Positions 3,148 through 48,060 of a stretch of DNA of 64,000 nt are shown here, piece by piece. Both the position numbers and the translations under genes were made by a program. The stretch spans positions 186,001 to 250,000 of the forward strand of contig JASANH010000510.1 in assembly GCA_030248295.1 (NCBI GenBank), given 5' to 3'. The notes beneath the pieces were generated by a model. That model worked only from the letters and a program-made list of their open reading frames with translations, did no database searches and was not told where the DNA came from. This DNA comes from Mesodorylaimus sp. YZB2_4. Lineage: Eukaryota; Nematoda; Enoplea; Dorylaimida; Dorylaimidae. Each line of letters begins with the position of its first letter. The stretch's first letter is position 1.

Positions 3148-4290
3148 GTCGGCACTCAGTTCTCCAGTCGTTGATTGGACTTCACACTCCATCCAGCCGT
3201 TTATCCTTCTGATACACACTTGCGATTCCATGGAAAGCTGTGGAAGTCGAAATCTGAGACGCTACCATCACGTCACAAACCTTTGAGCAATGAAAAGTTG
3301 CGCCGACGACTAGACAGCAGTGCTCCAAGGAAGGTGGGATTGAGCTTGGCTGGAAGAACCTCACAATCAGGTAAGGAAGTTTGAAATTTACAATAATCGG
3401 AGTTACAAGGAATAAGTTCTTTCTGGGAAGGATTTAAAGCAATTTGTAAGTCCTCTGGGATGGTGGTTATAAAAACATTTGTACCAGTACTTTGCATATG
3501 TCATTGTGGACAAAGCATGTTCATGTTCTTGTTTCACTCACTCACTGATTATTGGTTTGTGGATGCGACGTCAGGGGGAATGGCACTTTTTACAGAGCAA
3601 ATTCGCTTTAAAAATTTTTTTCGAAAATCTGTTCTTAACTATTAAATAAACGTCAGCTACGCCTTTGCCCTCCCTTTTCAATAGCATATCACCTGCGGCT
3701 GCCCCAGTGCGATGGCACTGAGTATTTTGTAATTATTTGTCGCTCGTCGAGTCGTAGGAGATTCGGCCAGTGTGTGTTCCGAACCAGGATCCAGGATATC
3801 ATTCCGAACCGCACGCATAGTGGCCACTACTTAACGTTAAAAACGTTTCAGGTCTTTGGGTTTATTCTAATGGGGTATTTTCTCAGTGGAAATACTCAAA
3901 AAAACTTATTTACAGACTGCAAATAACTTATTTGTAGACTTCAAGTTTTAGGTAGTTCTGTCTTGGTACAATCGAAACTAAGAGTTGATATTCTAAGCTG
4001 TCTGACTCTGCAGTTGCCAATTGTCGCATCTTCAGAGTCTGTTAATGATTTCCATTACAGGATTAGCTGTTTCAGAACGGCTGTAAATATTCACTTGAAA
4101 ACTCAATTTAGATAGCCAGACCCATTACTTATAAGTAATGGCGCCACAGATTTAAAACGCTTCTCAGCGACTTGAGTGTACTTTCATGTTTTGCGCGCAT
4201 ACTGTACGATGGAAGGAATCTTTCTTCATGTGATCGAATCGTAAGCTTGGCCCAAGCAGACTAGCCAAAATTTCTCAGCCTGGGTAGTGT
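3148..4290. other. intergenic, nothing recognised
   Basis: AT-rich sequence with only short open frames of 60-75 codons on both strands. No family recognised. Confidence 0.3.
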
Positions 4291-4292
4291 TG

Positions 4293-4410
4293 GTAAACGC
4301 TAACCTTAGCAACGATTCTTAAACGCGCTAACGACATCTTTTCTTGCTAACGTTATTGACGGTAAAGATATTCATTTTCAGATAAAGCGGTATAATGGTA
4401 ACGTATATTT
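4293..4410. repeat. TTAACG/CGTTA repeat patch 1
   Basis: Many overlapping TAACG and CGTTA words (GCTAACG, TTATTGACGG, GGTAACG). The same style recurs at 36570-36722 and 37155-37290. Confidence 0.5.
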
Positions 4411-4794
4411 TGCATGCGAATATCCCGCGTTTTTCAAACCTAGGCAAGAAGCTCACGATTAGGTTATGCACAAAGTACTGAGCGCTGCAAAAAATTCACA
4501 GATTTAGGAAAGCTCCTTTATCCTCCTGTCCATCGAAACCATCTGCAAGCTTGCAGGTGCTATATTGCGATTCAGGGAGAAAGCTATACGGGTGGTGGGG
4601 GAAGGGCTGTTGTGATATAGTTAGTTTGTTTGTTCTAGGCCTCGCTGAACCACCCCAGCATATCGATTTTCAGGTGATCCAGTCACAATGGGTTGAATGT
4701 AGGTAGTTTTCCAGCTCGTCTTGATTATTTTTCCTCTGACAAGTTTTTATGCGTGGTCCTTACCAGATATTGTGTGTTCCCAACCAGTAGTCTC

Positions 4795-4826
4795 ATTTGC
4801 ATAGGGAGCTCAGACTTGTATATAAG
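4795..4826 (+). promoter_or_regulatory. octamer plus TATA box, candidate RNA polymerase II promoter
   Basis: ATTTGCAT, the classical octamer, lies at 4795-4802 and TATATAAG at 4819-4826. This spacing is typical of a strong core promoter with start of transcription around 4850. It sits just upstream of the candidate coding exon at 4877. No reporter or transcript evidence is available, so function is inferred. Confidence 0.4.
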
Positions 4827-4876
4827 TAGCGCGTTTGTGTGCGTTGATGCCAGAGTGTGTCTCTGAAGAAGTCAGT

Positions 4877-4937
4877 ATGCCACGCTTCGTAAATCGTCGT
4901 GATTATCGTTCGTCGCCCTATCGGTCTCATTCCATGA
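4877..4937 (+). CDS. candidate short first exon of an unidentified gene
   Basis: Downstream of the octamer/TATA pair, an ATG at 4877 (with an in-frame ATG at 4847) opens 20 codons rich in Arg, Ser and Tyr. They end at a good donor, A|GTAAGT, at 4937/4938. Possible continuation exons follow acceptors near 5896-5901, where about 30 codons are open in more than one frame, but phases do not settle which is used. I do not recognise the product. It could be a real small gene or a chance frame after a promoter-like sequence. Confidence 0.22.
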
Positions 4938-4939
4938 GT

Positions 4940-6416
4940 AAGTCGTATTGAGTGTAGGGAGTTCGGAGTAGGAAAAGCCCAATTTCGTTACACTGTATTC
5001 TTGAAGCCTTTCCTAGCATGAATTTTCGCGGGGATCCCCTGAAAAGTTTCCTTCGGTGTGAGCAATGGAAACTTGTTTGAGGCTCAGGGTTCTGATACCT
5101 GGATGTGCATCAGCCTTGACAGTAAATTTCCTTGACAGCTAGTTTCCTTGTCAGTTTTGCACCTCAGAAAAAAAAGAACGTATTGACACTCATTCATCGA
5201 ATGCATTTACAGTTGATGAACTCAATTGGTGCACTGTGCACTTATTAGGAAAAGTTTACGCAAGTTTTAGATTTCACAAGAGCTTTCTGGATTTATGCGA
5301 TCATAATCAGGGAAACCCGTAGGAGTCACGCCTCACTAGTCGAATTGCAAGGTTCCAGTCAATAATCAGTGGCTCTTCGCTTCTTGCATTGTAAGACCTC
5401 CTGCAGAACATCTTAAAATTCTGTAATTGATAAAGTCTTTTGAAAATGAGTGGTCACTTTAGTGTCCTGTTCAAAATCGAACCAATTTTGCTCTTGGTGT
5501 GCTGCAATAAAGCAGAAGCAATTGACAGAACTTGCCCTCCCCTCACGCAGTACGCGACTGGCGAAGTATAGTCCGCTAATTTTCTGCTAGTTAAAGTGGG
5601 ACTTCAATGGGGCAATCGGGATTTTTACACGCATAGGGACTGCGCAGCTTCTTAAAGATCCGATATCTTTTTTCGCGAACAATATCGACACAATTTAGAG
5701 AAATTGTGGCATAACAGATTACTGCTGCTTCTAGGAAAACGATCTTCGTGTATTGGAATGCGCTAGATCTGAGATGGTCTGAACGAAATAGACTTTTTCT
5801 GCAACTGAAATGATCTGTTCAACGGCGCAAGGCGCCACCATATATATATGCTCGAATATTTGTACAACCTACTTCTTTGTCCTTTTCATATTTCAGGTCA
5901 GATCCATTGAGGATCCGAAGGCGGCTTCGGTTAGATGTCTTAACCATCCGCCTGGAAATTTTCCTGCTGAATGGTTTTGTCGTTAAGATTTCAGTCTCTT
6001 AGATCTCTTATTGCTTGCAAGCTGCCATAGCTACAAAGCTTTCAAGTCTGTCAAGAATACCGCATGATAACACTCTTTACTGAGAAAACCAAGCTGTGTA
6101 TTATCACTGACCAGCTCTGATGGTATGCAACAGAATTGCTAGCAGATGCGGAAGTGTCTCCACGAGACTAACAACAACCCTCGAACAATCACCATCGTCA
6201 CGCTCTCAGCTCTGTAATTTAGCCATGGGGCCATCTTTTAGGGTTTTTTATCACCAGAAATGAGTTCTTGGCTGACTAAACGTCGTTATTGCAGGGCGAT
6301 ACATGCCTTAGTCAGGTCAGATAGAGACTACACGAATCTTTTTTAGGAACTTTCCGAAACAAAGAAACCAAAAGGTTATCATCTCACTGCGCCATTTCTG
6401 CATGTAACTGCCTATA
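4940..6416. other. intron or intergenic DNA
   Basis: May hold the rest of the gene starting near 4877 (polypyrimidine tract and acceptor near 5890-5901). Otherwise nothing recognised before the next GT11 gene. Confidence 0.25.
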
Positions 6417-7612
6417 ATGCCTAAATTTATCATATTTCTTATCGCGGTTGCGCTCACTGCTTTCATCGCGACAACGGTTACTTTTTTCAATATTTCGACG
6501 AAGGAATATTTTATGAGGTTCATTCCGCTCGCACAAATGACTGTAAGAATTACTCACTCAAACAAAGAAAAACGCTGAAAGTGTTTTCGCTTTTTCAGCA
6601 GTCCGCCAACAATGTAAGAGTGAAAGAAATTTCAGATCGCAACGTTCCGAATATGGGGAGCAGCCATGTATCCAGTCTCATCTCGCCTAAATCTTGCGGA
6701 CATTTAGTACGTTCATTTTGGGATGGTCGTCTTGGGAGCCAGATGTTCGTTTATGCGTCCTTTTATGGGATGGTGAAAGAGCAAGAAATGCAAGGGGCCA
6801 ACAAGACGGCTTATATTCAAGTTTCCCAGATTCCATCTTCTCTTGATTATGTTTTCGAGAATTTAACAACACCTCGAAAAGTTCTCAATGATTCCTTTCT
6901 TATATCCAATGATTTTGTGCCTCTGATGGAAACAAAATGCTGTACTTTTGATAACACTGGATTGAAAGATCTGCGATGCGATGGGAAAAATTTTTATGTC
7001 CAAGGGTATCGAGCGAATTTCCGGTATTTTTCAAAACTTTCTGATAAAATAAAAAGAGAATTTATTTTTAAGCAACGCATTCGAGAAGGAGCTTCCAAAC
7101 TGCTCAATTATACATTGACCATCAATGATTTAAATCGTGATAATTCCATTTTAGTTGGCGTACATTTGAGACGAGGTGATTTTGCGTTGCCTAGAAAAAT
7201 GGGATACGGCCACTGGCCTGCCAGTGAAAGCTACTTTAAAAAGTCTGTCAGATTTTTCGAAACAGTATATCTGGATTCTAAGAATAATAAACAGAATTTA
7301 AATTTAGTTTTTCTTATATTTGGGAATGACTATAAATGGAACAAAAACGCCACAAAATCGATCATCCTGAAACATCCGAATGATACCCGACTGATTTTAA
7401 TGAACCCGAAATATTCTAGCCCAGCTGTTGATTTGTGCGCCATGAGCATGTGCGATCATATGATCATTTCGACGGGCACATTCAGCTGGTGGGCTGGATT
7501 TTTTAGTCCTGGACTGGTAACTTATCAAAAGGAATTCGCGAGGCCTGGATCAAGCTTGTATGAAGAGTTTAACGTGGAAGAGTATTTTCCTGAATCGTGG
7601 ATTGCATTGTAA
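6417..7612 (+). CDS. GT11 alpha-1,2-fucosyltransferase-like protein, gene 2 (two exons)
   Basis: Exon 1 is 6417-6542 and exon 2 is 6599-7612, giving about 379 residues. Exon 1 starts at ATG (MPKFIIFLIAV) and encodes the cytoplasmic tip and signal anchor. It ends ACT|GTAAGA, phase 0. The 56-base intron ends TTTTTCAG|CAG, a tandem NAGNAG acceptor. Exon 2 carries the lumenal catalytic domain with WDGRLGSQMF, HLRRGD, CDHMIISTGTFSWW and a FPESWIAL end. The third GT11 gene has an intron at the same place and phase, which supports the model. Predicted GDP-fucose-dependent Golgi enzyme; acceptor unknown. Large blocks are almost identical to the first GT11 gene while the middle third differs. Confidence 0.85.
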
Positions 7613-7644
7613 AAAGATAATCCTTCATTTTACTTCACAAGATG

Positions 7645-7650
7645 AATAAA
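7645..7650 (+). terminator. polyadenylation signal of GT11 gene 2
   Basis: AATAAA 33 bases after the stop codon at 7612. A second AATAAA follows near 7693. Confidence 0.5.
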
Positions 7651-7992
7651 ATGCCATTAAGTTCGTGAAATCTTGTCACATGAGCAGTTGAGCAATAAAT
7701 ACAATTACAGTGGAAAGTTGAGCAGTAATTACTTGACATGGTCCTGCACCTCAATGCTGTTTATCCAAAGCAAATGATCTCCCATGTTTTTTCTGCTGTG
7801 TTCTACTGTAAGTGTCATTTCCTCCAGAATCACATGCCGTAGCTGGTTTGTTGGAGCTGGGTGTACCTGGATGTAGGCACCTTTTTACACCGACCATTTG
7901 CGAGCACGAGCGAGCGGCCTCCACGAGCGATGCTTCCCCCAATCGTCAAACTAAATAGGGCACACCCGAGTGAGTAGGTGCTATTTGAGCCA
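7651..7992. other. intergenic between GT11 gene 2 and the mini-Polinton
   Basis: No gene recognised. Short frames on the minus strand show no domain. Confidence 0.3.
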
Positions 7993-7998
7993 TTTATA
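7993..7998. repeat. left target site duplication TTTATA
   Basis: Identical to 11401-11406 immediately beyond the right end of the element. Confidence 0.75.
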
Positions 7999-8535
7999 AG
8001 TAGTAATAGGGCACCCCCCCTCTGCGAGTATCTTTTGTGGCACAATGGTTAAGCATAGGCAGTGTAAAGACTGTTACTGTCATGTTCAAACCTCCTGCAG
8101 TATCAAGGAGCAATTACAGCAATCATATGATCGTCAAAGGACAGAGACATCTTTTTAAAACTTTTTAACGGCAAAGGACTGACGAGTTGCTTTTTGCAAT
8201 TTTTTACAAACCAATGATGTGACTACCAAAATTAAAATATTATTTTTTTCCTGTTCAAGGAACTTTTGTCACGTTTTGTTTTTTCCTGACAAACTATAAC
8301 ATCGTTAAAGGACAGAAGAACTGTTTTTGATATATTTTATATCTTCGTTACATTTTGTTGTGTATTCTTATATGATCTTGTGGCAATCTGTTTTTCGTTT
8401 CTTTTTTTTAAATTGTACATTCGCTAAAAGTTTGTTAATTTTTTTCTGTCCGTTATGCAGTGTTGTATAATTTTTGTATCCTGCTTTTTTACTTCTGACA
8501 TTATGTTGCAAAAAAGCTGCGCATCAAATTTTAGT
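7999..8535 (+). repeat. left terminal inverted repeat of the mini-Polinton
   Basis: Matches the reverse complement of about 10850-11400 at roughly 75-80 percent by eye, with scattered indels in A/T runs. Shared stretches include CTTTTGTGGCACAATGGTTAA and AAAGGACTGAC. A tRNA-like pair, TGGCACAATGGTTAAGC (about 8039-8055) and TGTTCAAACCTCC (about 8083-8095), sits inside. Confidence 0.75.
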
Positions 8536-8706
8536 TTTTTAGGTTTTGCCCAAGGAAGTACTGCCGGCGACAGTCATGGTGAATGGAACTTGCATAGTAA
8601 GCATGGACGCATATCCTTCCTCGCCGGTAGCCATGACTGGATGTGCTGCTGATTTAGGGTTTCTTTTGTTCCTTATATCAAAAGCGAAAGCTCAGTAAAT
8701 ACAAGT

Positions 8707-10031
8707 TTAATGAGACATCAACATTTTCTGCGCATTGATTTTGATAATGCGATTAAAACGCAGCAAACATAGAATAACCAATGGTCTCTGTGATACAGCA
8801 CTGGTTTCGTAATCAATCTTCAAACGTAAGGGACCCAGCTCGTGCGTTGGTTTCAAAATACTAAAGCATTCGTCGAAACGTTCCAGATGAAAACACATGA
8901 TATTACTGTATATGCATTGGCATGATTTTCATAGTTGATTTCGGACATGCCCGCTTTGTCCAAGCAGCAGCCCGAATTCAAGAAATAGTCCAAGTACCGG
9001 GTCCAGGTCCGGGTCTTAGACCAGGTACATGCGCGCATAATTATTTTCACAAAGTCACACTGATAAGCAATCAACACACCATCCTTTTCTAAGGCCACGT
9101 TTTTCATGCGGAATGGTTGAAATTTGAACGGATTATTTAAAATTAGACCAGTAAATTCACTTGGTAATAAATGAACAATTTCCAAACGTGCTGGCGATAT
9201 GCCTTCGTAAATGCAGGCCTCCACTGTCGAGAAACCTTCGGGCGCGATGATCGGCTTCAGGACCGTGTCGGTGAACATGTACTGGGCTGGAGTCGTCATC
9301 AGAAGTCGTTCCATGGCCGCCAAGGATGCGTCGTGCAATCTGACACTACGTACATGCAGGTAGGCCCTTTCTATGGTCACAGTGAACTCTTCGTTGGTTT
9401 CTTCCCGCTTATACATTATGAATGTTTTTGGAATACGGCGGAACAAGCGGACGACCATTTCGATGCCCGGAATGATATACTCGCGCATTTTGTAGAAATC
9501 CAAGTGTATTGGTCCAATCAGATGGCCTATACCACTCTCAAAGTAAGGCTTGAATGCGTCTAACGATTCTTGCGACAGTCCATCCAAGCCACCATCGTAC
9601 CATCCACTGGTGCTCAACCAGGATTTTCTCTGATCATAGGGGCAGCCAGCCAGCACGTCCAAGTAAGCGCTCCATGGTAAGCAGTTGCTACTTTGGAGTA
9701 CCAATTCGTTATTGAACAATAAAGTGACACCAGAGAACATGGACATCAACACATTCCGAGCCAGGCCAATCTTTTTCGTTGTGGGGATACCTTTTGCAGC
9801 CTCTTTGTCGGCCGCATATTGAATTTTTTTATGCAATTCCAGAAGGGTGGGCGACAGATCAGTAAACCACGTGAGAGCACTCGGTATGCGAAATTCCCAT
9901 GACGAGTTGACGTCATCGTTTAGTAAGGGTAAGCTAAAGGGAATAGTCTCCATCCTACTTTCAGCGATACTGAGCTCTTCTGGCGGTTCTGAGAAAACAT
10001 CCAGGTCTGCCGTTGTATCTAATCGATTCAT
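8707..10031 (-). pseudogene. F54H12.2-like putative Polinton capsid protein, frame-broken
   Basis: An ATG at 10031 opens 392 codons ending at 8853. The reading frame that matches the family C-terminus instead continues in a shifted frame, about 8898 down to the stop at 8707. A one-base-class frameshift therefore lies around 8885-8905. The order of blocks (DLDVFSEPPEELSI; a WEFRIPS strand; DLSPTLLELHKKI; ELVLQSSNCLPWSAYLDVL; HLIGPIHLDF; NPFKFQPFRM; ANAYT; GPLRLKIDY in the shifted frame) resembles the animal F54H12.2-like family as I remember it. I believe that family is Maverick/adintovirus-type capsid (hexon-like double jelly roll), but could not verify it. About 440 residues over both frames would suit a double jelly-roll capsid. 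The gene lies centrally between the element's TIRs and shows no intron. Confidence 0.6.
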
Positions 10032-10849
10032 TTCCTCTTGTTTGACTAGATCTTCTTGTTTTTCTGGTTTTCAAGTTTCTTGGAATTTTGTTGAGGACTT
10101 TTCTTACTTTTACCAGCCTTTCCTAATAAAGAGAACAATTGCAATCGGTCGACAGTTCGGCTACTTCTACCGCATGGCTGATCCGCCATGACAACCATGA
10201 AAACCTGGATTCTTCAAGTCTATAAATTGCACTTTTCGGCCTCCAATGAAGTGAGAATGTGAGAAACAAGGGTGGCGTTCATCTAAGCTGACAAAATTCA
10301 ATGCATGTGATTATTAATGAGGGGATGAGACGCGAAAATTTCATGGGTCACCTCCTCGAAAACAGGATTGATTCAGTCTTAACCCCATTTTGTAGGTTCA
10401 TAAAAATCATGTGACGTAAACTTATACTCGTCATTGAATTTGTTACTCCATTTACTTTACACTATCCATAATAGGTTGTAACATTCATACAGACAACAGG
10501 AGGTGGACTGCTATCCACCAGCGATCTACTGCAAGACTAGCTTACTGTAAGTACAGCGCTGCTGTACACTTCATATTTCTCACTATACTTTACATAATCA
10601 GAATCAGCAGAAGGCTCTGTGAATTACTGTAACTTTGCACTGAATACAGTACACCATCCGTCATTGTTGAAGTTGATTACACACCAAAATACCCTGAATT
10701 CTTACAGTAGTTTACATCGTTCGCGTCAGCTGTCTTTGTGTTGGTTGCCGCAACTTTACACCTATCGTCAGTACAGTATACTGTCTGTCCCTGTACATAT
10801 ATTTCCTAGGTTGCACTCTGTAGCCTGCGATAATTTCAAAAAAATTCAC
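10032..10849. other. interior of the mini-Polinton upstream of the capsid-like gene
   Basis: No second gene recognised. About 10540-10800 is rich in short GTACAG/CTGTAC-type palindromic words. The capsid-like gene's promoter should be in this region. Confidence 0.3.
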
Positions 10850-11400
10850 ACTTGATATGCGTAGCTACTTTTCAACATAATTTTAGACGTAAAATAAATA
10901 AACAAGATACAAATGATTGTAAAAACACTGCACAAGCAAGAAAAAAAATTTAAAAACTTTCAGTAAATGCAAAATTTTTTTCAAAAAAAAAAGAAAACAG
11001 AATGCCACAAGAAAATATAATTGCACAACAAAATGTAACCAAGAAATTTCATATATATCAAAAACAGGTCGTCAGTTGATTCACATTTATTATTCAATGC
11101 AGAAAAAATTTAACAAAAGTTTTATGTACAGCTTTAACGAAATAACGAAAAAATGTTTCAAACTTCGCCAGTCATGGACACTATTAGTTCGCGGAAAAAT
11201 TTAAAAAAAAAACGTGTCAGTCCTTTACCGATAAAAAAATTAAAAAGCATCTCTTTGTTCTTTGACGAGTCTAGGATTACTGTAACTGCTCCAGGTTTGC
11301 TGTAGGTGGTTTCAACATGACAGCAACAGTCTTTAAACTGCCTATTTTTAACCATTGTGCCACAAAAGGTACTCTCTGAGGGGGGTACGCTATTACAACT
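10850..11400 (-). repeat. right terminal inverted repeat of the mini-Polinton
   Basis: Inverted counterpart of 7999-8535 and of similar length. The inner limit is approximate. Confidence 0.75.
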
Positions 11401-11406
11401 TTTATA
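11401..11406. repeat. right target site duplication TTTATA
   Basis: Identical to 7993-7998. Confidence 0.75.
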
Positions 11407-12349
11407 GAATATACATACTCTTTCCATCAGCAAGGACGAATCGATTATTGCAGACCAACTGCGAGGCGAGGGAAATCCAGAATTGAGGCATAAAACTTGG
11501 TGAATCGAAAACCAAGGGTTGCTAGACAGGAGTTACAGCACAGCAGTGCTGGTTGTCATGAGTGTTGTGGTACTGTGCACCAGATCCACCGAATCCCAGT
11601 TTAGTCCACAGCGCTGCTGGGTCCTGGAGCAGTCGCTTGACCCACGACAACCGCAGGCTCACCAAAATTGCACTTACGTTTCGTATATAGGCGCCTGGTC
11701 CACACAAGCTGTGGCAGCACACCCTAACGGATCTTAGGAACCACCGTCCCACGCAAAATCGAGGATTTAGAGCCCTATCCTTCGTAAGGTATCCGTAGTG
11801 GCTACAAGGTTTATCAATGAGCAAACCAGCACAGAGTCCAGCAGCTCATCCCACACTAGCATTCTCCCACCTTTGTCAGCCTTCTTTTACGCCAGTTATC
11901 TTGCTTCTCTTCCAAGGATTCGAACCTAATCGACTTCAGTTATTCCACCCGGTATCTCAGCCCTGAGGGACCGAGCACCGAGCGCCATGCAATCTGTTTT
12001 TTTTGCTTAACTTCGGCTCGAAATCCATCTTAAGTGGCTGACAATTTCTAGTGTGGCATCCGCCGCTTCCCTGTTTGCATGTTCCCTTCCCTGAAGGTGT
12101 GTTGTCTGCATATTTCCCTATTAGTACCACAGATCGCAATACCACGCACATCTGGACAACTTTCTCAACCTGGACAACCATAAAGTCGATGGCTCTGTAA
12201 ACAGATAGGGTGATATTGAGTATCCTTGACGAATGCCCCTGCCCAAGGCAATACGCTCAGAAACGAGTCCCTTATTAAGTACCTCGCTACTAGCGCCCCT
12301 GTGCAGAGTCTTGACTGCTCTGATAAAAGTCGGACTAAAGTTTCTTATT
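11407..12349. other. intergenic, probable repeat debris
   Basis: No protein family recognised. GGATTCGAACC near 11914 looks like a Pol III B box on the minus strand but lacks a matching A box and cloverleaf. Confidence 0.3.
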
Positions 12350-12725
12350 TCAATGCCAAGTGTAAGGGTCCCAATTTATCGTGTCAGAAGCTTTTTCAAT
12401 ATTGAGGGCAAATTCTTTTTCAATGACTGGAGCAAACCCGATCCATGCGCCGACGCCTGGCGCGTCTTCATCGATCGCAATACGAATATTCTCTCCGATA
12501 TACCTCCCAGCTAGGAACCCAATCTGATTCTCATGAACAAGGGCGCCCACATGCATTTTCAGCCTGTTAACTAAAGCCTTAGCCAAGATCTTGTAATCGC
12601 AATTTAGGAGAGTGATAGGCCTCCAGCCGCTAGGGTCAGTCAGATCTTTGCCGGCCTTTGGCAACAGCGAGATCACTCCTTGTGTCTGCGATGGCGACAA
12701 GTCACTCGCCTGCAGCACAAGAAAT
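12350..12725 (-). mobile_element. L1-like non-LTR reverse transcriptase fragment
   Basis: A minus-strand frame contains QTQGVISLLPKAGKD, DPSGWRPITLLNCDYKILAK, NRLKMHV and HENQIGFLAGRYIGENIR. These are the fingers region of an L1-clade reverse transcriptase. A jump then leads to FALNIEKASDTINWD, a degenerate form of the palm motif, so internal sequence is missing or altered. No intact catalytic DD motif or endonuclease remains. The hydrophobic upstream part of the same frame (to 12835) is not part of the family. Dead remnant. Confidence 0.7.
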
Positions 12726-13069
12726 AGGGCCAGCCCGACGCACAAAGGCAATGCACAATATAACGTCAAGAGAGCACAAGCCAGATACCAAAAAGCAAAA
12801 ACGAGAGCCTTCATGGTAAGATGCAGACCGCACACTTCATTGTCAGTTCAAAAAGAAAACATTTCCAATTTCCACTTAAAGTCAATATCCACTTATTGCT
12901 GAATACCAACTGAAGCATAGACCAATTGGTGCAGAAATTGATCTACGCGCCCTGGCAAAATCATATCGATTAGATGAAATGCAAACATGCCAACAGACAG
13001 ACCAAAAGACATGTATCTCACACTGCATCCTACTGTACCCTATGGTCTGGCCCTCGTCAATGCACTATA

Positions 13070-13215
13070 TTTATATAAAAAAATATGTTATCAGACAACG
13101 AAAGGTTAGCCCAGTCACCCTAGGGTAACCAAATCTGGTATACCTCCCAGCTAGGAACCCAATGCAAGGCGAGACGAGGTTGGCTGGGCTTCCTCGGCGG
13201 CACATGCTTGAGTAG
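13070..13215 (+). repeat. left-type terminal repeat of the TTATCAG MITE family, with filler insertion
   Basis: Begins GTTATCAGACAACGAAAGG and has the inner AGCCCAG..GGCTGGGCT inverted repeat, as at 46201-46320. It is interrupted by a 25-29 base insertion (13134-13162) identical to 12498-12522 of the L1-like remnant. With the inverted end at 15281-15370 it may bound one 2.3 kb composite element. Confidence 0.6.
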
Positions 13216-13319
13216 GTTATACTTATCTCTGCAGGGCGGTTATAGCTGGCCAGTTTTGTGTAAGGGACCAGGGTAGTCTGGGACACGAGCATACCCGCTG
13301 AAACACGTCAAAATCAAGA

Positions 13320-13690
13320 TATTTTATCAGCACATGATGGGTTGTAAAGCGGGCAAGGCCACCCTGGCCATGCAGGAATACTGGAAAGCAAAGTTAGGAA
13401 GTGGCTCAATTGATTTCGGGGCTTATTGGAAGCTAACCAGGACGAAGAATGTTGACGGGCTGACTCGTAGTTTGCACTTTCGTTTGCTGTATAAGGCTTT
13501 GTACACATGAAGGAGGGTTTCTAAATTTGCTGAGGTTGAAGCATATTGTAAATACTGCATGAATCACTATGCGCGTGATAACACAGAGGATGTTCACCAC
13601 GTTTTCGTCTCAAGTCCACGGGCAGTGGCATTTTGGAATAAAGTGGAGGATTTTCTTAAAAAGATAGATCCTCCAGCCCCCAGCCATTGA
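13320..13690 (+). mobile_element. C-terminal fragment of an L1-like retrotransposon ORF2
   Basis: The plus strand reads through LHFRLLYKALYT, a TGA, and then a C..C..H-type region (YCKYCMNHYARDNTEDVHHVF) before a W at AFWNKVEDF. This layout matches the cysteine-rich C-terminus of L1-type ORF2 proteins. One in-frame stop and no upstream reverse transcriptase. Orientation is opposite to the L1-like fragment at 12350-12725. Confidence 0.5.
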
Positions 13691-13779
13691 GTTGGGGGCT
13701 GAAAATAGGGTTTTCGGAATAGTAGGTTCGTCCAACAAGTTCATCACCTCAATTGAAAACTTAGTTGTGTCATCAGCAC

Positions 13780-13997
13780 AGAGGTGCATATGGTTTGCGA
13801 GGGTAGACTACTGGGGGGATAAAGAAAACTGGGGGAAACCCCTGTGGGGGGGCAAAAATTTTTAAAAAAAGAGGGGGGTACACCCCCCCCCGCTAACAGG
13901 AGAAAAACAACACTTCTTCCTCCCTTCCTTTTTTTTTTTTCTTTTTTTTGGTTTTTGGGGGGGTAAAATATAAAAAACAAAAAAAAAAAAAAAAAAA

Positions 13998-14070
<73 letters not shown>

Positions 14071-14100
14071 ACGAAAATAAAAAAAGTTGAAAATTTTTCG
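13780..14100. repeat. homopolymer-rich low-complexity tract
   Basis: Runs of G, C and T give way to about 90 bases that are almost only A (13979-14068). Open frames of poly-Lys or poly-Phe here are artefacts of composition. It could be a retrotransposon poly(A) tail plus poor-quality consensus. Confidence 0.7.
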
Positions 14101-14514
14101 GATGGAAAAAAATTTGCGAAGGTGCTTCTAATCATGAGAGGACTAATAGTGTATGTTGTCAGTCAGTGCATGCAGTTGCTAATGTGCGGATGGTTTTTTG
14201 GTTTGGTGAACAACAGACTTGACTGATTTATCCGACCAGGGAGGATGCGTACAGAGTTTTCTGACGCATAGGCGGGGAGATCAAACAGGTAATAATGGCC
14301 TGTATGGTCTGGTGCCATGTTTTTTTGACTGATGGCTTATCTTAGGTGGTTTCTCAGGACCACGAAAACAGAAATACTAATGAAGATAACAAAAATGATA
14401 AAGTGATGAATTGGGTCGATTTAGACGGTTCTTAAGGTTTTCGTTATTATATGCGCTCAAGGAAAAAATACACGTAAAAAAATTACTTATCTAGATGTGA
14501 TTAGTTTTCGTTCA

Positions 14515-15375
14515 GGGCCTCACAATCGCAGAGTTACACTCACCCATAATACATGCCTCTGTCATGTACTCGGTGCATCGTGGAGTCATGGGGTCGATTC
14601 TCAGTGAGGTTTTATTCTTTTTGTTGTTCACCTAAGGCTAGTACCCACATGAATATACTTATTCGTATTTTGAAGTAAGTTCGGACGTTTGGATATGGGA
14701 ATACGATTCCCTTTTGTTACCTTGAACTTACTTTGGAAAGAGCGAGGACGCTGCAGTTAGGTTGCATCTGCTGTGTAGCGAGAGCGGCGTTGTGGACGCG
14801 TAGTTGAAGAGAGCGACGAGAGAACCGACTGCTCAGGTCGGCCGGAAGAGAGAGACTGAATATATCACAACTTCGTTACACTCTCTTTTACGGACAAAGA
14901 TAAGCAGGCGACCACTCTGGTTGGAGACAGAACGAAGAGAGAATGAGCCACAGAAAGCGAACTAAGCATAAAAAGGAAAGAATCACATCGTAAAGTCACG
15001 GATCGACGATGCTTCTCCTGGGCTGTAATGTGAGCCTTGAAATCCATCGCGCTCCGTCGCGACATGCTGTGACAGCACGGGTACTTTATGTGTGGCACCT
15101 ACCCAGTGATACCACGTAGAGCAGGAAGTTGAGCTCCTGTGTAGCCAGAATGCTAATAGCTTCAGGCGTACAGCCTTCAGCACTAGAACGACCATGGCTG
15201 AGGTAGGGGACGCCCTGTTACACTTTTTATTACTGACAGTGTGGCCATTCTGTTTGATCAAAATTTTTCTACAAACGCCGCCGAGGTAGCCCAGCCAACT
15301 CGTCTTGCATTTGGTTATAGTAGGGTGGCTGGGCTAGCCTTTTCGTTATCTGATAGCAGATTTTTTTTGAAATAC
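14515..15375. mobile_element. TTATCAG-family element, longer copy with internal insertion
   Basis: 14515-14780 matches 46375-46635 (ACTCACCCATAAT..CATGCCTCTGT, GAATACGATTCCCTTTTGTTACC, GAGGAC..GTTGCATCTGC). 15218-15370 matches 46660-46810, ending in the inverted TIR. About 430 bases (14780-15215) are extra in this copy. No transposase frame is visible. Confidence 0.6.
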
Positions 15376-15379
15376 TAAT

Positions 15380-16675
15380 ACTTTTTTGTACCCACATTTG
15401 GGTTGGAAATTCAGAGAATAGATAGAAGAAATTTGTCGTCTTTTTATTGTTTTGATTTCTAAGTCCAAAATTTTTGAAAAATCCACTTGCGATCTGCATT
15501 CTCTAAGGAAAAGAAGATTTGGAGGAACTTGAGACCGTTTGCCGCCAGAAAATAACTCGAATGTTGAGTTTTTGCTAAGCAATTCACATTGATACTTTTG
15601 TGGTCAATACATTTTGTCTTTCTAAGAAAAAAATGCCGTGCAATTTTTTGGTTCAATGGTGATAGATCATGTGACATGAGAAAAAAATCTTTGCTAGAAT
15701 CTTGAGTGACTGTAAAGATTTTCATAGGAGACGCGAGGTAAAGCATTTTTTGTTTTTAAAGTAAAGCAAAAACTCCAACCAAACTGAACTAACAGAACTA
15801 GCAAAACACTTGTCTCTGCTAGTAGTTTTAAGAAAGGGCAACTACGGCAAACACCAACAGACAGACCACAAGACACGTATCTGCATCCTACTGTACCCTA
15901 TGGACTGGCCCTCGTCAATGCACTATTTATACGACTATCACTTTTTACCTGAGCGCTTGACGCCCACGCCTGACAATCCTTTCGACTAGGCTCTCTCGAA
16001 CTCCTTTATTCCTGCGATGTATGAACAAGCCGCATTGTTACAAACGATAAGACTCATGATAAAATTTAAAAAAAGGAATTCGGAAGTCGCTAATTTCTTT
16101 TTTTCGAAATGCACGATTTGAAAAAACCGTTACTTTTACGTAATGGGGAAAAAACAGTGTTGTGGGTAGCTTCCCTCTGTCGCTCGAATCGAATACCTTC
16201 CATTTACTCTGCAACAGGAAAGTCAGCTGTCGCAAAGTCAGCATGCCCATAGCTGACCTTTTGAGGACGGATTCCATTTTCAAAGGTCGCAACAAAAACG
16301 TTGCAAGGGCAAAACAAAAACAGAGAAAGTAGCCAATTACGAATACAAACTGATCGTGAGAACGGAACAGTGTCAAGAAGCCCAGATAGCAAAGTCATTC
16401 CTCGAATCTGGCTAAAATAGCTGTGAGGAATTGTCTGGATCGATCATCAGAAGCCCAGGAGCCATCGAAGCCCCGGCCATCAAGTAATTTTTGCAGTGAC
16501 GGCTGGGTCGTCAGATGCTGCGCAAGACCACCTTTCACTGTATCTCAAAAAAAAGTTTGGGGCACATATGGAAAAAAGCCTGTCAGTCTGTCTGTTTACT
16601 CGGTAGCCAAGCACTTGAAAGCGCACTAAAACGGCACCGCACATGTAGGATTATAAGCAAGAAAGAACACAACTA
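15380..16675. other. intergenic, nothing recognised
   Basis: Several open frames of 60-110 codons on the minus strand show no domain. A phrase near 15860-15920 is almost the same as 12995-13065, so repeat sequence is present. Confidence 0.3.
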
Positions 16676-16679
16676 TAGG

Positions 16680-18645
16680 AAAATTAAATTTATCATTTAC
16701 ATAAAACCCAGACGTGCTTTTTAAAATTATCCAATGAGTCCATTGCTTTGGTTCCAGGCTGTAATAGTCGAGTAAAGAAAGCTCTGTTTGAATGATTCAG
16801 TTCGAGGAGCTGGCGTGACTAGCTCATGAGGCTGAATGAAACGGCTGCTAAAACGCCGGCCACAGTCATCAAGGTGAATAAATGTTCGATTTCGAAAGAA
16901 TGCCCAGCCGTGATAAAATTTATAAAATTGCATGAGCTTCAGTTAGTCTCGCCTTTTCTTAAGCGATAAAAGATTCAGAGCACTTAACCCCGCATCGTAC
17001 TGAATGGCCCAATTATTCAGAATGGAACGTACCGCAAACTTTTGAGATCTCTCGAGGTCATCGATCAATGCCTTCTGCATGGGTGACCAAGAAGAGCAGC
17101 CGTAATCAAGCTTGGGTAGAACACATTGCATATATACCGTTTTTAATACTCCATTCGCATATTTACCGAATTGCCGTTTGAAGGCCCCAATCATCTTCCG
17201 GGCATGCGAGGCCACATAATGACAGTGTTCATTGAATTGCAAATTTGGCGAAAGAATCACGCCAAGATAAGTTACTGTTGCACTGAAAGCGATTTCTTGA
17301 CCACGAAACACCAAATTTGGCTTAGCGGGTTCCGTTCGACCAAGCCAAAATAAAATCGATTGAGTCTTCTGAACATTGAAATCGAGTCCTAATTCTTCGA
17401 CAAAGTCGCTAACAAAGTTCAAAGCGGGCTGAACACGCGATTCTAATTCAGACGAGGTTCTTGCAGGAACCAGGAGCGCAAGGTCATCTACAAATGCTTG
17501 TAATAGGTAGTCGGGGAATGTTCTCCTGAATTCTGATAGCAGCGGGTCAATCAGCGATATGAACAAAGACGGCCCTAGTACTGGTCCTTGGGGCACTCCA
17601 GAGGTAACGGCTGACGTAGCTGAGGCACAGTTTCCCAAAACACCGAGCTGGCTTCGACTTTCAAGATATGATCTCAGCCACCGCAGAAGCTTTGGACAAA
17701 GTTTGTGATAAGTATCCAGATTTTCTAGTTAGCGGAGATGGACCACTGTGTCGAAAGCTTTCCGTAAGTCGAAGAAAATTCCACCTACAAGACGGTAATC
17801 CTTGCCGTTTAGCCAGTCATGGGCCGTTTGCGTAAGATTGATCAAAGCCGTCGAGGTAGATCGACGGGGGCGAAAACCAAACTGGTTTTCGGACAGGCGC
17901 AGTCGAGGTTTTAATAAACAGTGTATATGCGATTCCGCCACTTTCGAAACAATAGGTAACAACGATATCGGCCGATAATTTTGGACCTGATTCCGTTTCC
18001 CTGGTTTAGGGATTGGAGTCACCTTCGCCAACTTCCAAGCGGCAGGATAGCATTCCTCAACAAGCGACCTGTTGATCAGTGCAGCAAGACCTGGGCTAAT
18101 AGAATCGACGATGCCACGCAATATAGGTGAAGTGAGGCCATCAATGCCGGGAGCACAGTTTTTCTTCAGGCGTAGGATGCTCTCCTTGACAAACGAAGCC
18201 GAGACTAAGTAATAGTTATAATCATCCAGATCAGACGGGGGCGGGATATAGTCTCCCGGAGGATTGAAGATGAAATTTTCTTCAAATGACCTGCGAAAGG
18301 CTTCTGCCTTTGATGCTGCTGTGTAGTGAGGACGATCGAAGTTATCAGTAAGAGGTGTATTGAACGTTCTTGCGGCTCGAATTTGCGGAACGCAGACCAA
18401 AATTCGCCCGGAGACTTCGCATTGCCAAAGATTTCCATAACACACCGACGCTTAGCAGTTCTGATATCCTTTTTAACCTTGGGCCTAGGGTTAAATGAAA
18501 TGTACTGTATAGGGGAAGACCCTTTTGCCCTTGCAGCCTTTTGTCGTGCGACCGTTTGCCCGCGATCTTGTGGTGACTGAATGTAGGGTTGGGTCTGGTA
18601 CAGCTTCCTGAATCTTTCTTATTTCTTGCCTTACTCGTATTCATG
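16680..18645 (-). mobile_element. Jockey/CR1-type non-LTR retrotransposon, 5'-truncated and frameshifted
   Basis: Minus-strand pieces in order: a linker with SPGEFWSAFRKF (about 18400), then reverse transcriptase with NCAPGIDGLTSPIL, NYRPISLLPIVSK, FGFRPRRSTSTAL and FFDLRKAFDTV (18445-17729). A shifted stretch with LLRWLRSYLESRSQLG follows (about 17730-17640), then SGVPQGPVLGPSLF and the catalytic FVDDLALL, thumb sequence to 16943. A shifted C-terminal piece ends near 16680 (RTFIHLD..RRFSSRF). At least three frame breaks exist and the endonuclease domain is missing. A dead copy of a reverse-transcriptase element that moves by target-primed reverse transcription. Confidence 0.85.
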
Positions 18646-24714: not shown

Positions 24715-26008
24715 ATGGAGCGCACGCAAATCGTTTCAAGCAACTCTCCGAAACAGAAGATTATCTCAACTACGTCCTTTCGGCGATTTAATGCAACGTC
24801 TAGTGGTAAATGTCGCACGCTTCTTGCTCTAGCTTTGCTAACGGGTATTATTCTTACATTTTTCGCCTTTTCTAATATTACTCCGAACGAATATTTCGCG
24901 ATCTTTATTCCGTTGAGTCTCTCACAAAGGACTGTAAGTACAAATCGCTATCAGCAAAAAATGATGCAAAAAATGTTTCCGTTTTTTTTAGCTGCCGAGT
25001 AACGCAGCGAAAATAGGGATTGTTTCAGACCCTGTGATTCCGATTACCAGAACCAGTCCTGCATCCAGTCCCATCTCACCCAAATCTCCGACTTGTGGAC
25101 ATTTAGTACGGTCATTATGGGATGGTCGTCTTGGAAGCCAGATGTTCGTTTATGCGTCCTTTTATGGGATGGTGAAAGAGCAAGAAATGCAAGGAGCCAA
25201 CAAGACGGCTTATATTCAAGTTTCCCAGATTCCATCTTCTCTGGATTATGTTTTCGAGAATTTAACAATCCCTCGGAAAATTCTCCATGATTCTTTTCTA
25301 ACATCAAAAAATTTCACAACTCTAAATGAAAAGAAATGCTGCACTTATGATGACACTGGATTGAAAGATCTGCGATGCGACGGGAAAAATTATTATATCC
25401 GAGGGTACCGAACGAATATTCTGTATTTTTCAAAATTTTCTGATCAAATTAAACGAGAATTTCAATTCAAGCAACATATTCGAGAAAAAGCTTGCGAAAT
25501 GCTAAAAAAAACTTTGGCCAACAATAATTTGAATCGCAGTAATTCCATTTTGGTCGGTGTACATATGCGACGAGGCGATTTTCTCGTACCGTACATAATG
25601 AAACGCGGTCACTGGCCCGCAAATAAAACTTACCTAAAAAAATCTGTCGGATTTTTTGAAACTGTATTTCTTAACTTAAGAAATACACAAAATTTAAGTT
25701 TAGTTTTTCTCATATTTGGAAACGATTATGAGTGGAACAGGAACGCCACAAAATCGATCATTCTGAAACATCCGAATCGCACCCGACTGATTTCGATGAA
25801 CTCAGAAAACTCTGAGCCAGCTGTTGATTTGTACGCTATGAGCATGTGCGATCATATGATCATCTCGACGGGCACATTCGGCTGGTGGGCTGGATTTTTT
25901 AGTCCAGGATTGGTTACGTATCAAAAGGAATTCGCGAGGCCCGGATCAAGCTTGTATGATGAGTTCAACGTGGAAGAATTTTTTCCTGAATCGTGGATTG
26001 GATTGTGA
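24715..26008 (+). CDS. GT11 alpha-1,2-fucosyltransferase-like protein, gene 3 (two exons)
   Basis: Exon 1 is 24715-24933 and exon 2 is 24992-26008, giving about 411 residues. The start at 24715 (MERTQIV) is the first ATG giving a short basic cytoplasmic tail before the anchor LLALALLTGIILTFFAF. An in-frame ATG at 24646 or an upstream exon (acceptor-like TTATTTCAG at 24625) is also possible. Exon 1 ends ACT|GTAAGT and the 58-base intron ends TTTTTTTAG. Position and phase 0 are the same as in GT11 gene 2. Catalytic hallmarks: WDGRLGSQMF, a VHMRRGDF variant of the donor motif, CDHMIISTGTFGWW, and FPESWIGL at the end. Predicted Golgi fucosyltransferase. It lies between direct repeats. Confidence 0.85.
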
Positions 26009-40422: not shown

Positions 40423-43135
40423 GACAATGTGATTTCCGGAATTTCTGCAGGCTTTGAAAAATTTCTGGGATACTGTATTCTACTTCAGAAATACATACTG
40501 TATGACGTTATTACAATCTGCGAAAGGCAAGCACCACGGTATCTGATAAAAAAGAGACAGGCGGATTCTGCAACTAAAGCAACTATGACACAGAAAACTT
40601 GTGCCAGAAAGTATATAATGCTTAAGAAATAAAAAACCTGCAAAAGATGCAAGGTTGCTTTGGATGGCGTTTGTTTTGTTCTCTTTATGTACGAGATCGA
40701 TTCATAAGTAATGAACAGTTTGGCAATAGATCCAGTTTCTTTAAAATGGTACGATGTAAGGAGCCCCATACAGGAATAATTACTCGCCTACGAGCGTTGG
40801 ATAAGATAATATCTTTTCAAAGAGAAGAGAAAGCAGATTTCAAACTATACTCTCTGGCCCCTCCACAGGTGCGAAATCTGAATCAAGAGCGACAGTAGAT
40901 ATGTTGGACTCACAAAAAGCAAGTTGAGATTTGAGGGTCATGACAGGCAGAATGAAGCAATAGCTAGCCGACTGCACAAGTTGTTCACATTATAGCAAGC
41001 TGATGTAATAGGCGGAATAGCCCTACATTGGAGAAGAGTTACAGAAACCTTCTCATATCTGTTTAACTCCAGTATTTGAGGAACACGCATGAGCATGGAG
41101 CCACACACAACCAACCCAAGCAGGTCACCTATAAATTATAAGATGTAACAACGACCAATTTTTCTGAGTAATTTCTTCTTGAGGAAGGGTCCATGTGTGT
41201 GGAGGCACGATAGGATTGCTGGATGTGGGCAGTGTAAAGTACAATTTCGCTGCTTCGGCTCATGTTCAAGGGTAAACTTTTTTATCTCCTTACATATTTC
41301 TGGTGGAATTTTGACGCACTTCCAATACAATGTCGCGAGATAAACCAGACCAGTTTTCTCTGCTAATCAAGGCAGGGTTCAAACTGCAAATGCAAAACTG
41401 CCTAGCATTGGAAATCAATTAGAAGATATATATTTAGGTAGTAGGAGGAGTTTGTATTGATTTGACCAGTATGGCAGCTGCAGACTCTGGCGAAGTAGTT
41501 TCCTTACTTACTAAACATTGGCTCGCCTACGTTGGCCCTGGACCAGGCGAGAAAGGGCCAAGGAGCAAAGGCGAAGCAAACGCTTTAGGTCGCTATTACA
41601 TCGTGGCATTAGAGCATGGCTCGAATGATGATTTAACAAAATCATGGAGTATTCGAGGCATATTTTATAATTTCTAGGATAAGTGATGACGATTTGTGCA
41701 TGAGTATGTACTTGTTCCTAGGCGAAGGCTCAAAATTTGAATAGTCGCAGTTTGTTTGCTCTGACGGTGGGGGATAAACGACACATTTGGGAGATGTCTC
41801 ACAATCATTATTTGGACCGGTTAAATCTTGCTAAAGACCTCAAAGAATTAATCTTATTTCATCTCATGCAACTTCAGCTGCTTATAACAAATTCGTGTCA
41901 ACCCGATTAGAAATTTCGGGTCAGGGACATTCGGGTCGGTGTCGGTCGAGCTAGGTCGTGTTGACCTGATCTGGAGTCTATTTACTGCACTGGCACAGAC
42001 CAGCAGAAACTGGGCGAACAAAAAGTAAGTAATACAAGATCATCAATCACGAATACTCTGTGAGCCCCCTCGTGATCTGTGGTTCTTATACAATAATATG
42101 GGTTCTTATCTGTGGTGGGTGTATGGGTTCGTAATCTGTGCTTCTTATATATAATATCAATACCTCAGAACTAGCTCGTTCGGATACATAGCGTTCGCTT
42201 TTAGGCTTTATACCATGGCGTGAATGCATCTTCGTCGCACCTGTAAGACTTATGTATGATATTAACTCGCGTGGGAGGATAAAGTTATGTGAGGAAAAAA
42301 TTTATCATTTCATAAGCCATATTTATTGCAAGTTTTCGTGCAGCGATTAGCCCTGATCTCCGATGTCCTTTCTCCTTATCGCAGGCCTTGGGCCTTCCTT
42401 TGTCCTTATCTCAGGCCTTCGGCACGTCCTTGCATCCACCTTGGCTACGTCGCTCTGTACCCTGTTATCTGTTGTAATCATAAAAACCATCAGAGGTAGT
42501 GCAGACATTTCAGGACCACATGACAATTGAGAGCCTTTTTCCAACAAAGCCCCTCATGACTTCATTGACTTTAAGGGGTGGTATGTGCTGTACGTGCGCG
42601 GTGCTTGACTGTTTGGCCGCGCATATGCCTATTTTGCATTGGTAGCGTAAGCTCCACCTACCGCCCACTCTGTCTTTACATTCTGTATGCCCGCATGATT
42701 TTGTGCACTTTCTTTGCATTCTGACTAGTAGTTTGGTGCTTGGTAAAATCGATTAGAACTCCGTGCCTTTTGACTGAACACCCATACGTAAGAGGGTGCC
42801 AACGTTGTTCTATTTAGACTTTGCATGCACTCCCATAAAAGCTTGAACGCCTGGAATAACATCGCATCGCACTTGTTTACTTACCTGGTGTCCAATGCCT
42901 CGGATGAGACGCGTGCACTAGAGGCTGGTACTCAACAAACAAAAAGCAGCCCTTGTGCGTTATCACCTGCTAGCTGCATTCAGCTTCTAACAACAGTTCG
43001 CTCCACAAAACAATTGACTTTTATACTCCTATTGGAAAGGATGGAGGCTTGAATCGCTCAGGTAGATCCAGGTCCCCTGGTGTTAGCAGTAGATCTTAAT
43101 TATTGAAATCCATCGCTGCAGAACTACGCAAAGCC
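40423..43135. other. intergenic, no confident gene
   Basis: AATAAA near 40627 could have served the GT11 pseudogene. A 70-codon frame from ATG 41471 (MAAADSGEVVSLLTK..) with GPGPGEKGP is unrecognised. 41190-41280 resembles part of the mini-Polinton TIR (GGCAGTGTAAAG, CATGTTCAA). 41915-41960 is rich in TCGGGTCGG words. Confidence 0.3.
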
Positions 43136-47280: not shown

Positions 47281-48060
47281 AGATTTGATAAGAAAAACTT
47301 TATGCATAATAATTTATGATATAATCGAGGAGAATACTGCTTTCGTCCTCCGTGATTGCCTGATACTTACAATAATAGCCTAGTGATTGTTCGAGCCATA
47401 GATTTTTCCGAATTCGAAGTTTGCGCCATTGAATTCTTCTCTTATTTTCGAGAACACGTCTGCCTACGACTGGTATGTGGAATACGCACTGAATCAGAGT
47501 CGAGTATCGGCCTATATCACGTACGAATTAAGTGATGCACTTCGTTACGCATACCTGTACAAATATGGCGGCAGGTATATGGACACTGACTCGTGGACTC
47601 TGAGGAACCTGAGTGCTTTCATGAACGTTATGGGGTGGGCGGACAGCGGCACTATCGCCAACGGGCTGCTCTTTTTTGAGCAAGGACACCAGTTCATGAA
47701 AGCAGCTATAGATGGTATTAAAAAATATTTTGTGGCTGGTCGATGGGGGTCGATCGGGCCGCGAATGATGAATGCCATCCACAAGAGTAATGCTGTCAAT
47801 AAAAAAACTTATAGAATTGTGCCTTCAAATTTGTTTTTCCTAGTTCATTGGTCTCAATATTGGTTACCCTTCACCCCAGAACAGATTCATTACATGCACC
47901 GCGCTGCCAATCAGTCGTACACGTTGCATGTATATGGGTATATGGTAGCCAGTAACAACTTGTAATCAACAAAGCCGCCAAGTGATATCTTTGCTGGACA
48001 AATATTGCAGACGCATTGCGAATGGAAGATATGTATGCTATGGTATGCTTGGAAAGTTAG
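47281..48060 (+). pseudogene. GT32 pseudogene, internally deleted duplicate of the gene at 54349
   Basis: 47281-47395 matches the 5' flank of the intact gene (54011-54125: GAGATTTGA, CGAGGA(A/G)AATACTGCTT, AATGATAGCCT-like). At about 47400 the sequence jumps to the middle of the coding region (FAPLNSSLIFENTSAYDW). About 650 bases holding the start codon, anchor and stem are missing. The rest reads in frame through SDALRYAYLYKYGGRYMDTD to TAA at 47963-47965, where the intact copy has TAT. The old stop has changed from TGA to TGG, and 3' flank similarity continues (GTATGCTTGGAAAGTT). No ATG can restore a type II enzyme. Confidence 0.82.

What the first reader, a model, noticed from the sequence alone, without database searches (positions are those of the whole stretch)
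7999..11400. Miniature Maverick/Polinton-like element whose only visible gene is a capsid-like gene
Seen: ends AGTAGTAATAG..CTATTACAACT, inverted repeats of about 540 bases, perfect TTTATA target duplication outside both ends, total 3402 bases, one large gene on the minus strand in the middle. Known: Polintons have 6-base target duplications, AG termini and long TIRs but are usually 15-20 kb with polymerase, integrase, ATPase, protease and capsid genes. Inference: this is a non-autonomous derivative that kept only a capsid-type gene. A capsid-only element is unusual and could represent a family that exploits full Mavericks or virions.
Basis: partly seen in the sequence, partly recalled or inferred. 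Interest (0 to 1): 0.9.

Follow-up and report, generated by a model that had tools for sequence, protein, structure and literature searches.

The report
Stripped-down remnant of a virus-like transposon
This 3.4-kb stretch of an animal-type genome is a worn-out, cut-down copy of a virus-like jumping element that kept only its (now broken) capsid gene, probably because that gene lay next to the surviving end; it is a dependent fossil rather than a capsid-making parasite, though its relatives in the same genome form a curious group in which no integration gene was found.

Summary
The element (7999-11400) has the stated ends, homologous inverted repeats of 542 and 562 nt, and a perfect TTTATA duplication; 9 of 9 fetched paralogous empty sites (of 13 matched) read through the junction with one hexamer. 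The minus-strand gene is a Polinton/Maverick-type major capsid gene (MCP); larger relatives in the same 145-Mb genome carry PolB, integrase and A32-like ATPase genes. It is not an intact capsid-only element: the MCP frame is broken, and the ATPase survives only as about its first 34 residues, cut where the left repeat begins. No other listed copy has that junction (40 of 189 candidates scored). Best reading: an internal-deletion derivative, mobilised by a helper integrase, that kept the MCP by position. Its MCP belongs to a clade of 20 sampled copies; no integrase was found beside the MCP where looked for. Codon-position data suggest partial constraint on MCP and ATPase while the clade spread. 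The two ends differ more than decay predicts and may come from two elements. The jelly-roll fold was not tested: the structure job never finished.

The parts
7993..7998 (.). left copy of the 6-bp target site duplication TTTATA
   Evidence: single hexamer in 9 of 9 fetched paralogous empty sites
7999..8540 (+). left terminal inverted repeat (542 nt); nearer to 20 of 22 other Polinton ends compared than to the right repeat
8540..8664 (-). remnant of the packaging-ATPase gene: about residues 1-34 of about 220, cut where the left inverted repeat begins (just after the Walker A-like GKT)
   Evidence: tblastn with L025 ATPase, E 3e-7; C96:194539-194637, 82% identity; blastn 92.9% to L009 ATPase
8710..8898 (-). 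3' end of the MCP gene (about the last 60 codons), in a different frame from the rest
   Evidence: frameshift
8853..10031 (-). open part of the major-capsid-type gene (392 codons), with an internal insertion and out of frame at its end
10032..10340 (.). upstream region of the MCP gene shared with relatives; in several relatives another repeat type begins within a few bases of 10340 (element coordinate 2342)
10386..10858 (.). subterminal segment that in larger elements of this genome belongs to the end region; here it follows the MCP upstream region, with no match to the o136-type gene or integrase in between
10839..11400 (-). right terminal inverted repeat (562 nt), nearest to the ends of the C177 element
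11401..11406 (.). right copy of the 6-bp target site duplication TTTATA

Best explanation
A non-autonomous internal-deletion derivative of a Polinton/Maverick. An ancestor first lost the genes between the MCP and the integrase-side end, which left the MCP next to that end. A second deletion, seen only in this copy, ran from the inner edge of the left inverted repeat into about codon 34 of the ATPase gene. The remaining 3.4-kb unit still had both terminal signals and was inserted, by integrase supplied from an intact Polinton, into a copy of another repeat with a 6-bp duplication. It then decayed without selection. The MCP was kept because it lies beside the surviving end. Shown: ends, duplication, empty sites, MCP kinship, truncated ATPase, broken frame, no other listed copy with the same junction, larger relatives in the genome. 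Inferred: integrase in trans, order of the deletions, movement as the small form, neutral decay. A deletion derivative of some kind, moved or cut in place, I hold at about 0.95; the confidence given is for the whole account. That the two ends came from two elements is a separate, compatible question, listed first among the rivals for clarity.
For: Ends, TSD and empty sites. MCP kinship: 108 matches in the own genome, 105 of 207 candidates scored; a profile search reaches 11 proteins, among them P0010 at 8e-22, a sequence type that I recall as the Polinton MCP. Larger relatives: L025, L026, L027 and L028 each have integrase, ATPase and MCP matches in one 10-kb piece, 3 of 4 also PolB; the L025 integrase matches rve and Chromo, its ATPase Pox_A32; 7 of 13 public relatives of the PolB carry PF03175. 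ATPase remnant ends at the repeat. In one search (76 matches, 40 of 189 candidates scored) alignments coming from the inside stop at element coordinate 542 or short of it, those of the repeat stop at 526 or before except the window's own two repeats, and none but the window's own element crosses 542. Decay: window-only differences by codon position 10/13/15; internal insertion and frameshift. MCP kept by position: C175 and C678 keep MCP residues 4-193, C157 4-347.
Against: No integrase activity was tested, and nothing dates the deletion relative to the insertion. The two repeats are 81.5% alike over 524 ungapped sites, lower than in 6 other elements measured (88-97%; three of those over part of the repeat only), which a simple deletion from one parent does not explain. 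No parent with the exact two ends was found. Genome searches score only the best candidates, so a second copy with the same junction could be missed.
Confidence: 0.65

Rival explanations
1. Chimeric element (compatible with the best explanation): left end from one Polinton, ATPase-MCP-right end from another, joined during replication or repair before insertion.
For: The left repeat is closer to 20 of 22 other repeats than to the right one; the right repeat is closest to C177. An AU test disfavours the two as sisters, p 0.025. MCP end branch is only 0.051.
Against: The AU test used a multiple alignment that gave a lower left/right identity (71.6%) than the pairwise one (81.5%). AT-rich repeats may decay faster or align badly. 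The branch separating the two has support 93/89 and is short. Other class B elements also have fairly unlike repeats (C745 88%, C157 90%).
Confidence: 0.5
2. Deletion in place: a larger Polinton inserted here and lost its middle later, so the 3.4-kb form itself never moved.
For: The ATPase remnant shows that a deletion happened; the TSD would look the same.
Against: The break lies where the left/right repeat homology ends, an odd place for a random host deletion, but this is weak evidence. It does not explain the unlike ends.
Confidence: 0.3
3. A member of a helper-dependent, integrase-less Polinton family that kept capsid and packaging genes for its own packaging, i.e. a satellite (about class B as a whole, not this broken copy).
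For: Class B: 20 sampled copies; no integrase match in 15 of 15 ten-kb pieces, L009-L019 and L021-L024. Shared-site codon positions 63/44/115 for MCP and 17/15/35 for ATPase.
Against: All 20 class B MCP rows are broken by frameshift, stop or large insertion. In the pieces held, no pair of class B ends with matching hexamers was found apart from C157 at 5 of 6; in several the other end was truncated or outside the piece. Transversion-only shared sites give 17/7/20, a weaker bias. Selection could date from before the integrase side was lost.
Confidence: 0.25
4. Chance inverted repeats around an unrelated or domesticated host gene.
For: Only one large ORF inside.
Against: Repeat score far beyond shuffles, empty sites, dozens of related ends, gene broken.
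Confidence: 0.01

Closest known systems
Polinton/Maverick elements (polintoviruses)
   Same: 6-bp TSD, terminal AGT repeat at the left end, long inverted repeats, MCP homologue, ATPase remnant; PMC8097293 (passages read) names 5'-(AGT)2//(ACT)2-3' end motifs and 6-bp TSDs for vertebrate Mavericks
   Different: 3.4 kb instead of the 15-20 kb given in PMC4028283 (passages read); no PolB or integrase match; ATPase truncated; MCP broken; the two repeats unlike each other
Larger Polintons of the same genome (L025/C604, L026/C657, L027/C255, L028/C225)
   Same: MCP and ATPase side by side; MCP 69-70% DNA identity for the first three
   Different: they carry integrase and, in 3 of 4 pieces, PolB; their MCP frames are open
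Class B reduced elements of the same genome (for example C41, C365, C745, C258)
   Same: MCP 82-86% DNA identity for the four named; one clade with the window copy, 100/100; no integrase match beside them
   Different: these four keep much or all of the ATPase gene, and three (C41, C745, C258) an o182-like gene; they have a different ~0.9-kb repeat type
Virophages and other satellite viruses (recalled; papers seen in the listing only)
   Same: capsid-coding and helper-dependent in concept
   Different: no sign that the window element could make a capsid or be packaged

Membership tests
Autonomous Polinton/Maverick | 6-bp target site duplication | tested here: met
   TTTATA on both sides; 9 of 9 fetched empty sites
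Autonomous Polinton/Maverick | terminal (AGT)2 motif and long inverted repeats | tested here: met
   AGTAGT at the left end; AGTTGT, one mismatch, at the right; 542/562 nt repeats; motif from PMC8097293
Autonomous Polinton/Maverick | protein-primed PolB gene | tested here: not met
   no PolB match at 1e-4 in window 4001-16000
Autonomous Polinton/Maverick | RVE integrase gene | tested here: not met
   no integrase match at 1e-4 in window 4001-16000
Autonomous Polinton/Maverick | packaging ATPase gene | tested here: not met
   only about the first 34 residues remain
Autonomous Polinton/Maverick | intact major capsid gene | tested here: not met
   homologue present but frame broken
Autonomous Polinton/Maverick | double jelly-roll fold of the MCP | not tested
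Autonomous Polinton/Maverick | protease gene | not tested
   no protease query was made
Non-autonomous Polinton derivative | ends and TSD of the autonomous family | tested here: met
Non-autonomous Polinton derivative | internal sequence derived from it, with replication and integration genes missing | tested here: met
Non-autonomous Polinton derivative | mobilised in trans by an autonomous relative | not testable with these tools
   open integrase frames exist in the genome; activity not measured
Integrase-less capsid satellite | functional capsid and packaging genes in the element | tested here: not met
   window MCP and ATPase both broken
Integrase-less capsid satellite | amplified lineage with constrained capsid genes | tested here: inconclusive
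   codon-position bias at shared sites, but no intact class B MCP row and weaker bias for transversions

The most novel reading that the evidence does not exclude
Class B, the clade that contains the window's MCP, was an integrase-less Polinton lineage that spread with helper integrase while its capsid and packaging-ATPase genes stayed under selection. It would be a capsid-coding satellite of Polintons inside an animal genome, and the window element a broken, end-swapped offshoot of it.
Probability: 0.25. Interest if true: 0.72.

Novelty: new variant of a known kind. Interest (0 to 1): 0.42.

Why it matters
Whether Polintons form virions was still open in PMC8097293 (2021; passages read), which says that no particles had been seen. 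Dependent lineages that keep capsid genes but lose integrase would show that capsid genes are useful separately from integration, and would give a natural test. The window element itself mainly shows how small capsid-gene fossils can arise: by position and deletion, without selection for the capsid.

Tried and rejected
Pol III promoter in the repeats: the left repeat has A-box-like and B-box-like words (motifs recalled), but ARAGORN and Rfam found nothing and the pair is not conserved across 24 repeats; dropped. Viral contigs: 42 stretches matched a pattern, none confirmed. PDB by sequence: two weak matches for the ORF (E 0.043 and 1.7), judged chance; none for the MCP profile or PolB. Pfam gave nothing for the MCP or PolB, and PHROGs and NCBIfam nothing convincing for these two. 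Gapped left/right identity of 72% was at first read as strong proof of unlike ends; pairwise re-alignment gave 81.5% of ungapped sites, so that claim was weakened. C745 as a clean class B element with TSD: its end hexamers do not match. Host species was not identified; one paper search with a guess found nothing useful.

Full report
WHAT IS THERE. The element spans 7999-11400 (3402 bp). Its ends read AGTAGTAATAG and CTATTACAACT, and TTTATA stands on both sides. The left 542 nt and the right 562 nt are homologous inverted repeats; the score of 355 compares with a maximum of 36 in 200 mononucleotide shuffles. The window is G000:C96:186001-250000 of a 145-Mb genome of 1067 contigs, animal by its genes (inference; species not identified).

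EMPTY SITE. The flanks, joined with one hexamer, match 13 other places across the junction. Nine of the 13 were fetched, and 9 of 9 run straight through with one hexamer, GTCATA. This confirms a precise insertion with a 6-bp duplication into a copy of another repeat.

THE GENE. The 392-codon minus-strand ORF (8853-10031) has 108 matches in the own genome, itself included; 105 of 207 candidates were scored, so this is a lower bound. A public protein search gave 6 relatives and a profile search 11. One of these, P0010 (E 8e-22), is of a type that I recall as the Polinton major capsid protein. No Pfam match and no convincing PDB match was found. The frame is broken: against an intact relative there are an internal insertion and a frameshift before about the last 60 codons, which continue in another frame. 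The fold was not tested.

THE SECOND GENE. On the same strand, downstream of the MCP, about the first 34 residues of the packaging ATPase remain (about 8540-8664). They stop where the left inverted repeat begins. The relatives' ATPase matches Pox_A32. In the whole-element search (76 matches, 40 of 189 candidates scored) many copies align from element coordinate 542, or a little further in, inward, and none but the window's own element crosses 542. The junction is therefore private to this copy among those listed.

RELATIVES WITH MORE GENES. Four 10-kb pieces (L025-L028) were examined with 12 protein queries taken from L025. All four hold MCP, ATPase and integrase matches, and three hold PolB. 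The L025 integrase matches rve (6.4e-7, just under its cut-off) and Chromo. PolB matches no Pfam model directly, but 7 of its 13 public relatives carry PF03175. C316 has PolB and MCP between two ends 96% identical over 0.9 kb; no integrase is listed between them, which shows either a loss there too or the limit of a capped list.

CLASS B. An MCP DNA tree of 26 rows puts the window copy in a clade of 20 rows (support 100/100) apart from 6 rows of the larger-element class. In 15 of 15 ten-kb pieces with class B copies (L009-L019, L021-L024) no integrase, o136 or ZnF query matched at 1e-4. L020 matches integrase and o136, but beside a different MCP (36% identical) about 2 kb from the class B fragment. 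Four class B rows (L049-L052) were held only in short pieces and were not tested in this way. In the genome-wide integrase list, C678 (the contig of L020) is the only one of the 18 other class B contigs that appears (110 of 448 candidates scored). PolB lies near class B MCP fragments in C175 and C678, and on C24 about 320 kb away (71 of 299 candidates scored). An ATPase match is found beside the MCP in L009, L010, L012, L014, L015, L017, L021, L022, L024 and L049; a short piece is found in L016; none in L013, L018, L019, L020 and L023. On the integrase side, alignments stop at element coordinate 2342 in C41, C234, C745, C754 and C208, and run across it into the subterminal segment in C846, C161, C175 and C678. 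In C41, C234, C745 and C754 another repeat type of about 0.9 kb abuts within a few bases of that point. I infer that the integrase side was lost before class B spread.

WHY ONLY THE CAPSID GENE. With the integrase side gone, the MCP is the gene next to that end. Other short copies keep it too, cut at other places: residues 4-193 in C175 and C678, 4-151 in the second C175 copy, 4-347 in C157. The C157 element is about 3.25 kb with hexamers TAAGTA and CAAGTA, 5 of 6 alike, its right end read by eye. Retention by position therefore suffices; selection for a capsid-only element is not needed.

DECAY AND SELECTION. Sites where only the window copy differs fall 10/13/15 on codon positions 1/2/3, as expected without selection. 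Shared variable sites in class B fall 63/44/115 for the MCP (binomial p 1.9e-8 against one third) and 17/15/35 for the ATPase (p 0.0017), with singletons at 166/163/202 and 49/48/68. In the 6 larger-class rows shared sites fall 9/5/43. Transversion-only shared MCP sites in the 13 near-complete rows fall 17/7/20, a weaker bias. So there was some constraint while class B spread and little or none in this copy. Against a live satellite, 0 of 20 class B MCP rows is free of frameshift, stop or large insertion, while 4 of 6 larger-class rows are, one of them the reference itself. These counts rest on rows projected on an intact copy.

UNLIKE ENDS. By pairwise alignment the two repeats agree at 81.5% of 524 ungapped sites, against 88-97% in 6 other elements measured (C745, C41, C157, C258, C177, C316; parts of the repeat only in C745, C41 and C258). 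The left repeat is closer to 20 of 22 other repeats than to its partner, and the right repeat is closest to C177. The MCP end branch is 0.051, so decay since insertion should leave the repeats at about 90% or more (inference). An AU test disfavours the two as sisters (p 0.025), but on a multiple alignment that gave a lower identity (71.6%). I take end-swapping before insertion as about even odds.

MECHANISM. Shown: insertion with a 6-bp duplication, Polinton-type ends, deletion into the ATPase, broken MCP, relatives with integrase. Inferred: integrase in trans, movement as the small form, the order of deletions, joining of two ends by recombination or template switching. Deletion in place after insertion of a larger element is not excluded (0.3).

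LITERATURE. PMC8097293 (passages) gives the (AGT)2//(ACT)2 end motif, 6-bp TSDs, and a vast majority of degraded elements. PMC4028283 (passages) gives 15-20 kb and the gene set; [quoted passage not shown] PMC6431247, PMC11071308, PMC2871265 and PMC9341512 were read in passages only, and those passages describe no such element. Searches listed no paper that I recognised as describing capsid-bearing non-autonomous Polintons; other papers in the lists were not opened, and Repbase, which I recall as holding non-autonomous Polintons, could not be searched.

VERDICT. A real element, correctly seen, and a decayed deletion derivative more than a capsid-only unit. The reduced clade around it is the more interesting part and deserves a comparison across species.

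Noticed in passing
L032:630-4112 (C177): A 3.48-kb element with Polinton-type ends (93% alike, ungapped) and no clear Polinton gene (best tblastn E 0.007), but with an ORF matching FAD-dependent oxidoreductase DAO (9.2e-9): perhaps a captured host gene fragment. No matching end hexamers were seen.
   Followed up: partly
G000:C602, near 11080, 19658 and 28238: Three copies of the repeat in the same orientation about 8.58 kb apart: a tandem array of Polinton-like units or an assembly artefact.
   Followed up: no
L010/L011 (C234) and L016 (C754): Long inverted repeats of 97-98% identity; the end-flanking hexamers are reverse complements of each other: hairpin-like duplications or assembly artefacts.
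   Followed up: no
L018:4356-9445 (C175) and L020:4906-9698 (C678): Related derivatives in two places that share one MCP breakpoint and a nearby degraded PolB.
   Followed up: partly
L009:8310-8441 and 8704-8805: The repeat of this class B copy contains tandem units of about 32 bp.
   Followed up: no
7759-7998 and 11407-11646: The insertion target is itself a copy of another interspersed repeat with 13 further places matched across the junction.
   Followed up: partly
616-1830, 6581-7612, 25034-26008: Three open frames of glycosyl transferase family 11 in the window.
   Followed up: no
43103-44215 and 54349-55389: Two alpha-1,4-glycosyltransferase-like (Gb3_synth) genes; a third similar frame at 47429-47965 was not scanned.
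   Followed up: no
51671-52369 and 58909-60003: Ion-channel gene pieces (Ion_trans_2, two stretches each); a similar frame at 56489-57241 was not scanned.
   Followed up: no
12350-12835 and 17729-18445: Reverse transcriptase pieces of retroelements.
   Followed up: no
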